64,000 nucleotides of DNA from an uncultured Arthrobacter sp. Lineage in GTDB: Bacteria; Actinomycetota; Actinomycetes; Actinomycetales; Micrococcaceae. Of the stretch, positions 1 through 1,835 are shown in pieces. The notes under the pieces were generated by a model. It did no database searches and was not told where the DNA came from. It saw nothing but the letters and a program-made list of their open reading frames with translations. The stretch spans positions 1-64,000 of the forward strand of contig NZ_CANLSZ010000003.1 of assembly GCF_947493765.1 (NCBI RefSeq). Direction: 5' to 3'. Made by a program: the position numbers and the translations under genes. Numbering within the stretch: the first letter of the stretch is position 1; each line of letters opens with the position of its first letter.

Positions 1-1
1 A

Positions 2-73
2 CCATTCTCGGAAGACCTCGGCGCCTACCTCAAGACCAACGCGCCACCGCGGCTACACCCTGGAATCGGATGA
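2..73 (+). CDS. C-terminal end of an unidentified protein (partial)
   Basis: The window opens inside a reading frame that runs from base 2 to a TGA at 71-73. It gives 23 residues ending NAPPRLHPGIG. A hairpin starts at the stop codon itself, which fits the 3' end of a real gene. A second frame also stays open to 88-90, so the frame choice is uncertain. No family can be recognised from so short a tail. Confidence 0.35.
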   Translation, partial: PFSEDLGAYLKTNAPPRLHPGIG

Positions 74-97
74 GCCCCTATAGCGCCTAGGGGCTAT
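73..97 (+). terminator. Hairpin after the truncated first gene
   Basis: AGCCCCTA (73-80) and TAGGGGCT (88-95) form a perfect 8-bp stem with a 7-base loop. It lies directly behind the stop codon at 71-73. There is no T tract, so this is a terminator-like hairpin rather than a proven intrinsic terminator. Confidence 0.45.
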
Positions 98-184
98 TCA
101 TCCCAGGTGGCCGGGAGGCAGAGTCGGACCGCTTTTGCCCAAAACCTCCCACTATGGGTTTCGGTGACAAACCTATGTGGTGCA

Positions 185-208
185 GCGCTGGGGTATACCC
201 AGTAACAC
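185..208. repeat. Imperfect palindrome, left copy of a pair flanking the HEPN cassette
   Basis: The core is TGGGGTATACCCA, a palindrome with one extra G. Aligned with bases 1626-1650 in the same orientation it matches at 19 of 25 columns. It lies 16-39 bases beyond the stop of the 252-aa gene. It could be a protein-binding site, a recombination scar or a weak terminator, and the sequence does not decide. Confidence 0.4.
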
Positions 209-223
209 ATCGGTGAAGAGTGC

Positions 224-982
224 TCAGTCGACCTGGAAAAGGGTGGGAGGAAAACCCGGAGTGGGTACGATCCCAGAGGCCCAGTTGAGCACCTTCCAGT
301 CGTCTCCTGAAAGCTTCATGACCATCGGGTACACCGCTCGGCTTTCTCCCTGCTCCCAGAGCCCTCCGTTCGGGCTGTCAGGATGCACGTACAGCAGTTC
401 CGTGTCGAGGTCGATCATCCTCACCATCGAACCGATAGCCGCTGTACTGGGGTCCAGAGGAAACCCCTTGCGGAAGTCGCGAAGGACAACTCGGCTGAGG
501 TCCTCCCACAGATCGTGTTCTCCCCGGATAGTAGACGCCAGTTCCTGCGCAGCCACGTCTAGGTCGTAGCCACCGCTGATTAGTGGCGTCTGGTTAGCCT
601 CCACCCACCATTGAGCTAGGCAAAGCCTGTAGGTTGGATGCATCACCCCCCAAGCCGCGATCAAATCGCCGCCATAGAACTTGTATAGGAAGCTCCACGC
701 TTCTTCAGTAACGGGTATTTGAGCGGCCATTTCTTGCTGGGCGTCTTCGGGCAAATCGCGTGGGTTGAAAGCCATGTCGTCCTTCGCGTAGTTCGTCGTG
801 ACGGGCTCGTCTGAACCATCTACTTCAACCTTGACTTTGTATCGCCCGGTCACAGTCTTGTCCACGATGACTCCAGTTGTCTCGTGGCGACCGAAGGTGA
901 CTTCGACTTGCGTGCCCGTCTTCATCTGGCCGGGTGATGGCCGCACGAAGCGACCCGGTATTACTCGACGATTCTTTGCCAT
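224..982 (-). CDS. Hypothetical protein, beta-barrel-like N-terminus and NTF2-like C-terminus
   Basis: The protein has 252 aa and no function I recognise. Residues about 20-70 (GTQVEVTFGRHETTG, then GRYKVKVEV) look like a small SH3/KOW-type beta barrel. The rest, rich in W and ending WKVLNWASGIVPTPGFPP, resembles an NTF2-like fold; both readings are by eye. The HEPN gene upstream stops at 996, so the two are almost certainly co-transcribed. GGAGG at 987-991 favours ATG 982; ATG 985 and GTG 1012 are also in frame. Codon use is less G/C-biased than in the pyr genes, suggesting acquisition. A partner or antitoxin role for the HEPN protein is conceivable but is inference. Confidence 0.7.
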   Translation of the reverse strand: MAKNRRVIPGRFVRPSPGQMKTGTQVEVTFGRHETTGVIVDKTVTGRYKVKVEVDGSDEPVTTNYAKDDMAFNPRDLPEDAQQEMAAQIPVTEEAWSFLYKFYGGDLIAAWGVMHPTYRLCLAQWWVEANQTPLISGGYDLDVAAQELASTIRGEHDLWEDLSRVVLRDFRKGFPLDPSTAAIGSMVRMIDLDTELLYVHPDSPNGGLWEQGESRAVYPMVMKLSGDDWKVLNWASGIVPTPGFPPTLFQVD

Positions 983-995
983 CATCCCTCCCTTG

Positions 996-1595
996 TCACC
1001 ACGGCCAGACACCGGTAGTTGTACCTAAGTATGCGCCTGTAATTTTGTCCATTCCATCCGCAAACTTGCCAAACCGCCCGCGCATCACGCGGAACGTATG
1101 CAAGGTGAGTGGGTGCTTAGAGTGTGCGGAAGCGATCTTCGTTACGTCGTTGTGTGCAATTCCGTTACGGGCTTCGTTTAGCCAGTCCAGCCGATCGCTC
1201 CAGTCAGCCCCACCCTTCGCCTGGGCGGGGTATATGGCTCTGAGATCAGTCCAGAGCGACATGCCGAGCTTTGCCCAGTCATTACCGATGTTGCCGGCGT
1301 TAGCGTTGCCAAAGTCAAGCTTCCTGCCGGTCAGGAGGGCTGCACGAAACGTATCGCGAAGATCTTGGAGGGGGACCTGCGCCGGGGTGCACAGAGCTTC
1401 GACGGATTCGTCATGTAAGTCCCTGCAGAAGCCCTGCACTTCGCCAGCGAGGCGCAGGAACAACGCGTGGTTGAGCTCGGTCACGTCACGCGGACGACCT
1501 CGAAGTCCACCTGTGACAGCCGCATGTACTTTTTCCATTCTTTCCAGAGCCTCTGCTCTGTCAGTTCCCCATTTTTGGAGCGCTTTTGAGGCCAT
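996..1595 (-). CDS. HEPN-fold protein, possible RiboL-PSP-HEPN-type ribonuclease
   Basis: The 199-aa, mostly helical protein carries RNGIAH at 143-148, the R-x4-H signature of the HEPN superfamily, whose R and H are catalytic in many RNases of toxin-antitoxin and defence systems. The upstream stretch DFGNANAGNIGNDW (94-107) resembles the conserved F-N-x-P-x-x-x-N-I segment of RiboL-PSP-HEPN proteins. It is the first gene of a two-gene minus-strand unit and is followed after about 13 bases by the 252-aa gene. TACATT lies seven bases before the ATG and no Shine-Dalgarno is visible, so the mRNA may be leaderless. Base composition is visibly lower in GC than the adjoining pyr genes. Superfamily assignment is fairly secure; subfamily and toxicity are inference. 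Confidence 0.65.
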   Translation of the reverse strand: MASKALQKWGTDRAEALERMEKVHAAVTGGLRGRPRDVTELNHALFLRLAGEVQGFCRDLHDESVEALCTPAQVPLQDLRDTFRAALLTGRKLDFGNANAGNIGNDWAKLGMSLWTDLRAIYPAQAKGGADWSDRLDWLNEARNGIAHNDVTKIASAHSKHPLTLHTFRVMRGRFGKFADGMDKITGAYLGTTTGVWPW

Positions 1596-1602
1596 GATGA
1601 GT

Positions 1603-1608
1603 AATGTA
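1603..1608 (-). promoter_or_regulatory. Candidate -10 box of the HEPN cassette
   Basis: On the minus strand TACATT is followed by seven bases and the ATG at 1595, matching the leaderless promoter geometry seen at many genes here. No clear -35 is present; the palindrome 1626-1650 occupies that region. Confidence 0.45.
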
Positions 1609-1625
1609 GCTCGATCTGCGCAGTA

Positions 1626-1650
1626 GCGTTGGGGTACACCCCAGCGTCAC
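1626..1650. repeat. Imperfect palindrome, right copy; possible operator of the HEPN cassette
   Basis: TTGGGGTACACCCCAG is an almost symmetric element with arms TGGGGT and ACCCCA. It lies 31-55 bases upstream of the HEPN start, about where a -35 box or operator would be. A similar sequence occurs at 185-208 beyond the other end of the cassette. Confidence 0.4.
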
Positions 1651-1835
1651 AGCTGCGGACCTCTTCATATTGTGTTGCTTCAGGGTCGTTCTCTGGTTTC
1701 ACCCGTGGATCTGGAGGCAGGTTTGCGCTCCGTGCAAAATGCCCCAGCTGCTCGGCCCGCCGTCGTCACACCCGGCCGGCAACCCCAGGACGCAACCGTC
1801 CCTGTGCTAGCTTTGATCCCGCAACCAGCCTTTAA

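What the first reader, a model, noticed from the sequence alone, without database searches (positions are those of the whole stretch)
224..1608. Two-gene HEPN cassette with an unrecognised NTF2-like partner
A 199-aa protein with R-x4-H (R143/H148) and a RiboL-PSP-HEPN-like upstream segment is coupled to a 252-aa protein that looks like a small beta barrel plus an NTF2-like domain. HEPN RNases are recurrent toxins and defence effectors. The pair lies in a visibly less GC-rich patch next to the core pyr operon, as expected for acquired DNA. I do not know a described HEPN/NTF2-like system, so this is the best candidate in the window for something new.
Basis: partly seen in the sequence, partly recalled or inferred. 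Interest (0 to 1): 0.7.

Follow-up and report, generated by a model that had tools for sequence, protein, structure and literature searches.

The report
Mobile HEPN RNase with barrel partner
A small, recently transferred pair of bacterial genes encodes a predicted RNA-cutting HEPN protein and a small barrel protein found beside it in distant bacteria, probably a toxin and its keeper, in a pairing for which we found no description.

Summary
The 199-aa protein is HEPN-like: R143-N144-x3-H148 is invariant in 10 aligned sequences, the model is confident (pLDDT 91.5) and five of its six best PDB rows are HEPN toxins. The pairing is real: of 20 distinct loci (Actinomycetota, Planctomycetes), all 13 with an intact HEPN frame are followed, -4 to +14 nt away, by a small KOW/SH3-like barrel protein. 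A leave-one-out profile recovers 16 of 16 barrels and no other ORF; pair distances co-vary (r 0.76). The NTF2-like domain is in 2 of 17 readable partners, and elsewhere sits on a PIN RNase; the barrel elsewhere sits on nucleotidyltransferases. The cassette (188-1640) is mobile: 92% identical to a copy elsewhere in a congener, dS 0.16-0.25 against 1.10 for pyrB. Best reading: a HEPN RNase toxin whose barrel partner neutralises or regulates it. Toxicity, neutralisation and RNA cleavage are untested; close rival: the barrel targets the nuclease to RNA or ribosomes. New variant of a known kind.

The parts
188..1640 (-). Transferred cassette holding both genes; this stretch is shared with congener G034 at another chromosomal place
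   Evidence: blastn 91.7% over 1453 nt, 188-1640, while the pyr region is about 75% identical; lowest-GC stretch of the window
996..1595 (-). HEPN protein, 199 aa, predicted RNase toxin; R143-N144-x3-H148, conserved QGFCRDLHD region, C-terminal PW
224..982 (-). Partner protein, 252 aa (262 aa if the GTG at 1012 is used)
749..982 (-). KOW/SH3-like barrel domain of the partner, the part found in every intact pair
   Evidence: A6 profile vs PDB: Spt5 KOW region 8e-4, NusG 0.0018, ProQ C-terminal domain 0.0034; leave-one-out test
224..748 (-). C-terminal domain of the partner, probably NTF2-like; lineage-specific extension, relatives found on a PIN RNase (L013), a protein with predicted membrane helices (L014, by eye) and alone (L032)
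186..200 (+). Left arm of a 15-nt inverted repeat at the cassette edge
   Evidence: the repeat finder I3, 93% complementary; the motif TGGGGTAYACCC (up to 1 mismatch) occurs only at the two edges in 64 kb
1632..1646 (+). Right arm of the inverted repeat, upstream of the HEPN start; itself a near-palindrome, so an operator is also possible
   Evidence: G034 shares only the inner part
1603..1608 (-). Possible -10 element TACATT, 7 nt before the HEPN ATG (would give a leaderless mRNA)
   Evidence: read by eye; not reported by the sigma-70 scan; inference only

Best explanation
A mobile two-gene HEPN toxin module. Shown by sequence: the pair is conserved, its two parts co-vary, and it was transferred as a unit. 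Inferred: the HEPN protein dimerises and cuts RNA with R143/H148, stopping growth; the partner, made from the abutting or overlapping second gene, binds the HEPN protein through its KOW/SH3-like barrel and holds it inactive; the variable C-terminal domain (NTF2-like here, other domains or none elsewhere) adds regulation or sensing. It would serve plasmid/locus addiction or abortive-infection defence.
Confidence: 0.53

Rival explanations
1. The barrel protein is not an antitoxin but the targeting or sensing subunit: its KOW/ProQ-like barrel carries the HEPN RNase to RNA, RNA polymerase or the ribosome, and the pair acts together as an abortive-infection effector.
For: The closest sequence relatives of the barrel are KOW/SH3 barrels of Spt5, NusG, ProQ and uL24. 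The same barrel is on nucleotidyltransferase-like proteins (L056, L057, L068) and the C-terminal domain on a PIN RNase (L013). In G034 the cassette lies about 1.9 kb from a DndB-family gene.
Against: A barrel kept open while HEPN is broken in 4 loci, and alone in L059, would be pointless for a pure targeting subunit. The window pair has no match in PADLOC-DB. Neighbouring genes were mostly read by eye only, so absence of defence islands is not established.
Confidence: 0.28
2. A relative of HEPN-MNT control: the HEPN RNase is restrained by a nucleotidyltransferase encoded next to it or elsewhere, and the barrel is a docking piece for that enzyme.
For: L003 has a DUF6036/AbiEii-type nucleotidyltransferase two genes downstream of the barrel. 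In L023 an ORF with a GSxARG...SDVD nucleotidyltransferase-type motif (by eye, motif recalled) follows directly after the broken pair. The barrel is fused to nucleotidyltransferase-like proteins in L056, L057 and L068 (Pfam run on the first two).
Against: In the other loci no such gene was noticed next to the pair, but they were read by eye only and several loci are short. The window itself ends 223 nt past the partner, so its far side is unseen.
Confidence: 0.1
3. An ordinary non-toxic RNA-processing pair.
For: Several copies lie singly among housekeeping-type genes (L002, L008, window; by eye).
Against: Patchy spread, plasmids, recent transfer and frequent decay do not fit housekeeping. Mere chance adjacency is excluded.
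Confidence: 0.09

Closest known systems
HEPN-MNT (HepT-MntA) toxin-antitoxin systems
   Same: Two-gene mobile module with a HEPN RNase of the R-x4-H type; best structural matches of the window HEPN model
   Different: No nucleotidyltransferase match in the partner; the partner is a small barrel encoded second, whereas MNT is almost always first (passage)
Ribo L-PSP-HEPN family (Pfam PF18735; Anantharaman et al. 2013, PMC3710099, passages seen)
   Same: Same HEPN subtype by sequence: 9 of 10 scanned members match at E<=1, best 7.7e-7
   Different: Listed there as fused to endoRNase L-PSP or in operon with ParB; 'barrel' and 'KOW' do not occur in that text, 'SH3' once for another HEPN family
MAE_18760 HEPN with ParA/Soj ATPase dyads (PMC3710099, passage seen)
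   Same: Also a HEPN gene paired with a non-MNT proposed antitoxin
   Different: Different HEPN family; an ATPase, not a barrel
KOW/SH3-like barrels (NusG, Spt5, ProQ C-terminal domain, uL24)
   Same: Sequence-profile similarity of the barrel; the profile also finds NusG genes (named by eye)
   Different: Here free-standing or with a variable extra domain, next to a HEPN gene
RelS-RelI (PMC13284704, passages seen)
   Same: Actinobacterial two-gene RNase toxin found by pairing; some RelI homologues are fused to a domain of the SnoaL/NTF2 superfamily
   Different: RelS is a BrnT-like RNase and RelI a distinct antitoxin with an HTH-like region

Membership tests
HEPN superfamily RNase | R-x4-6-H motif (recalled definition), conserved | tested here: met
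   R143, N144, H148 invariant in 10 of 10 aligned sequences
HEPN superfamily RNase | sequence match to a HEPN profile | tested here: met
   9 of 10 scanned members match HEPN_RiboL-PSP at E<=1, best 7.7e-7; the window protein alone only E 0.1
HEPN superfamily RNase | HEPN fold | tested here: inconclusive
HEPN superfamily RNase | RNA cleavage | not testable with these tools
   needs an assay
Pfam HEPN_RiboL-PSP (PF18735) | profile score at or above the gathering cut-off | tested here: inconclusive
   window protein 12.9 bits, cut-off 28.4; bit scores of the relatives were not printed
HEPN-MNT toxin-antitoxin | partner is an MNT nucleotidyltransferase | tested here: not met
   no nucleotidyltransferase match in the window partner at E<=10 in Pfam or NCBIfam
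Type II toxin-antitoxin | conserved abutting or overlapping gene pair that moves as a unit | tested here: met
   13 of 13 loci with intact HEPN, -4 to +14 nt with the starts I chose; transfer
Type II toxin-antitoxin | toxicity of one protein, neutralised by the other | not testable with these tools
   needs expression tests
KOW/SH3-like barrel | profile similarity to solved barrels | tested here: met
   A6 vs PDB: Spt5 8e-4, NusG 0.0018, ProQ 0.0034, over 32-46 of 65 positions; no structure model of use
NTF2-like superfamily | fold of the C-terminal domain | tested here: inconclusive
   single-sequence model pLDDT 35; A8 matches A7 over 34 columns (probability 90.6) and A7 matches designed NTF2 folds at E 0.016 and 0.22 (that 8uqf is an NTF2 scaffold is recalled); A8 itself finds no NTF2 entry
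Catalogued anti-phage systems (PADLOC-DB 2.0.0) | match to a model | tested here: not met
   0 families for both window proteins at E<=10; of 10 scanned members 3 match RTasHEPN (best 0.0091) and 1 Cas13-ApeA (0.021)

The most novel reading that the evidence does not exclude
A new class of HEPN module whose antitoxin is a KOW-type barrel carrying exchangeable sensor domains: the barrel inhibits the HEPN RNase directly, and lineage-specific C-terminal domains (NTF2-like here, at least two other unnamed ones elsewhere) tie release to different signals, with the same barrel reused on nucleotidyltransferases and the same NTF2-like domain reused on a PIN RNase.
Probability: 0.3. Interest if true: 0.7.

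Novelty: new variant of a known kind. Interest (0 to 1): 0.55.

Why it matters
HEPN RNases are widespread bacterial toxins and defence effectors, and the two-gene HEPN modules described in the paper passages seen here use enzymes (MNT, ParA-like) as the partner. A HEPN module with a small KOW-type barrel as constant partner would be a new way to hold or aim such an RNase. It is compact enough to test quickly, and its two partner domains (barrel, NTF2-like) are probes for further unrecognised modules.

Tried and rejected
Rejected: chance adjacency. Rejected: the NTF2-like domain as the defining partner (2 of 17 readable partners). Rejected as members: L025 (by eye a histidine kinase sharing RDLHD), L024 and L026 (remote HEPN-like, no barrel noticed). 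L015, a weak hit of the whole partner (E 5e-4), looked unrelated. The A6 hits L058, L060 and L065 are NusG by eye.

Dropped or merged before counting: L028 repeats L002; L001, L012, L031, L047 and L054 are the window; L051 and L052 are the L011 place; L027 is the second match in the L022 locus; L053 and L055 are L020 and L019. L029 (contig ends just past HEPN) is counted among the 20 loci but is neither intact nor broken. The 17 readable partners are the 13 intact loci plus L006, L008, L010 and L022. L011 was left out of the Mantel and leave-one-out tests as a near-copy of the window. L009 has an open HEPN frame but no obvious ATG start.

Led nowhere: viral-contig scans with A1 and with the L016 HEPN; phages at E<=1e-5; partner against plasmids; the L013 domain in viral contigs gave one short match (L030) that the A3 profile did not score, and in plasmids one weak Streptomyces hit (E 2e-3; region fetched, not followed). 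PHROGs gave only weak unnamed matches. The single-sequence model of the partner is useless. No Rfam match in the window. HEPN profiles find no PDB relative by sequence. Alignment A5 had one wrong row (strand error for L020) and was replaced by A6. The promoter scan did not report the eye-read -10.

Literature: no paper describing a HEPN/barrel or HEPN/NTF2 pair was seen in searches of the open PMC library; most subscription papers are not held, so this is not proof of absence. Seen: passages of PMC3710099, PMC13284704, PMC8195603 and PMC10440598; all others as listings only.

Full report
What is there. The window is the start of contig C3 of a 2.99-Mb draft genome in 31 contigs. On the - strand lie a 199-aa ORF (996-1595) and a 252-aa ORF (224-982; 262 aa from an upstream GTG). 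Pfam gives only sub-threshold matches: HEPN_RiboL-PSP (E 0.1) and HEPN_MAE_28990 (0.31) for the first, a PriA-type barrel (0.068) and DUSP (0.11) for the second. PADLOC and NCBIfam give none at E<=10, PHROGs only weak unnamed ones.

The partner is a conserved barrel. I tabulated 20 distinct loci: window, L002-L011, L016-L023 and L029. The HEPN frame is intact, or cut only by a contig end (L020), in 13: window, L002, L003, L004, L005, L007, L009, L011 and L016-L020. All 13 have, -4 to +14 nt after the HEPN stop (with the start codons I chose; several have alternatives), an ORF that begins with a barrel region. A profile trained on 15 barrels and tested on the sixteenth, for each of 16 in turn, recovered all 16 at E<=0.0064 among 3,032 ORFs of the same loci; the best ORF that is not a partner never went below E 0.34. 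The weakest are L022, L019 and L008 (E 0.0064, 0.0058, 0.0015), and some barrels are close relatives of one another. HEPN and barrel distances of 12 loci correlate (r 0.756; 0 of 10,000 permutations); part of this may be shared ancestry of the hosts. The barrel profile resembles KOW/SH3 barrels: Spt5 8e-4, NusG 0.0018, ProQ C-terminal domain 0.0034, uL24 0.075. Of 17 readable partners 12 are essentially the barrel alone (L002, L005-L010, L016, L017, L019, L020, L022) and 5 have a C-terminal extension: window and G034 (174 aa, 91% identical to each other), the planctomycete loci L003 and L004 (similar to each other by eye), and the Mycobacteroides plasmid locus L018.

The C-terminal domain of the window partner. 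Relatives occur fused to a PIN_3 domain (L013; whole-partner search E 2.3e-11; PIN E 2.4e-11) behind a ribbon-helix-helix gene (E 9.5e-6), behind stretches that look like membrane helices (L014, E 1.5e-4) and alone (L032, E 1.3e-22 with profile A3). NTF2-like is the likely fold but thinly supported: a 34-column profile match to a domain (A7) that itself matches designed NTF2 folds at E 0.016 and 0.22; no direct match.

The barrel elsewhere. In 376 genomes the barrel profile matched in 23, 25 places in all, of which three are pairs already counted. I read 9 of the other 22 places: L056, L057 and L068 carry it at the C-terminus of a nucleotidyltransferase-like protein (Pfam run on L056 and L057: Aminoglyc_resit, DUF2204, DUF6036, AbiEii; best 2e-4, one of them above its cut-off), L057 after an HTH_3 gene (3.9e-15); L059 is a lone barrel beside an integrase-like ORF; L058, L060 and L065 are NusG by eye; L064 was not explained; L074 gave no ORF. 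These contexts tie both domains of the partner to toxin-antitoxin-like genes, but do not say on which side the barrel acts.

Mobility. Window 188-1640 is 91.7% identical to a copy at another place in congener G034 (C1 about 1.456 Mb; its pyr genes are near 3.58 Mb), and the match stops at those edges. dS is 0.247 for HEPN, 0.157 for the partner and 1.097 for pyrB of the same two genomes: recent transfer. In 8 of 8 congeners examined the conserved pyr region begins at 1778-1820 of the window, beyond the cassette; of 6 congeners searched with window 1-1750 only G034 has the cassette; the HEPN is in 2 of 35 genomes of the genus, own included. The edges carry a 15-nt inverted repeat (186-200 / 1632-1646, 93%) whose motif occurs nowhere else in the window; G034 keeps only part of it, so it may be a transposition end, a recombination site or an operator. 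Window 1-77 is a repeat with two near-identical copies elsewhere in the genome, which would explain the contig end. One pair (L007) starts 63 nt after a tRNA-Leu gene. Of the three plasmid records, L017 (69 kb) and L018 (173 kb, MOBF) look like plasmids; L016 is 2.66 Mb with PurF- and PurL-like ORFs by eye and may not be one.

Decay. HEPN is broken in 6 of 20 loci: L006 (70-aa ORF), L008, L010, L021, L022, L023. The barrel stays open in L006, L008, L010 and L022, is broken in L023, and was not seen in L021. No intact HEPN lacks a barrel. This is what loss of a toxin with a kept antitoxin would look like, but the HEPN gene is about 2.7 times longer, so the direction alone is not significant (about 0.29), and some of these sequences are metagenome or draft assemblies.

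How it most likely works. A HEPN dimer cuts RNA with R143/H148 (inferred from the family), and the barrel protein made right after it binds and restrains it, with extensions adding regulation. Against this stands the rival that the barrel, resembling RNA- and ribosome-binding domains, brings the RNase to its target. I therefore moved the odds slightly: 0.53 neutraliser, 0.28 targeting, 0.10 nucleotidyltransferase control, 0.09 ordinary. Addiction and phage defence cannot be separated here: PADLOC-DB does not hold the pair, phage records gave no match at E<=1e-5, and in G034 it lies about 1.9 kb from a DndB-family gene (PF14072 8.4e-32).

Novelty. HEPN modules with MNT or ParA-like partners are known (PMC3710099 passages); none of the searches listed under Tried and rejected showed a HEPN with a KOW/SH3 barrel partner. 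I call it a new variant of a known kind.

Noticed in passing
window 1-77: Repeat at the contig end with near-identical copies at C1:747-823 and C14:27063-27136 and a short partial one in C8; possibly an insertion-sequence end.
   Followed up: partly
window 186-200 and 1632-1646: 15-nt inverted repeat at the edges of the transferred cassette; the motif TGGGGTAYACCC is absent from the rest of the window.
   Followed up: partly
L013 707-2010: Ribbon-helix-helix gene followed by a PIN_3 protein fused to a relative of the window partner's C-terminal domain: an unusual PIN toxin architecture.
   Followed up: partly
L056 910-1665, L057 624-1686, L068: Nucleotidyltransferase-like proteins with the HEPN-partner barrel at their C-terminus, in L057 behind an XRE-type regulator; upstream in L056 a VapC-like PIN ORF by eye: a possible separate toxin-antitoxin type.
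   Followed up: partly
L003 8496-9083 and 2251-2793: Near the planctomycete pair: a DUF6036/AbiEii-type nucleotidyltransferase and a ParE-like toxin gene.
   Followed up: partly
L023 (reverse strand) 1930-2634: Nucleotidyltransferase-type ORF by eye directly after a broken HEPN/barrel pair.
   Followed up: no
window 1778-1820 onward: Conserved start of the pyr upstream region in 8 of 8 congeners; no Rfam family matches it.
   Followed up: no
L016: A 2.66-Mb Nocardia farcinica record labelled 'plasmid 2' carries PurF- and PurL-like ORFs by eye, so it may be a mislabelled chromosome piece.
   Followed up: no
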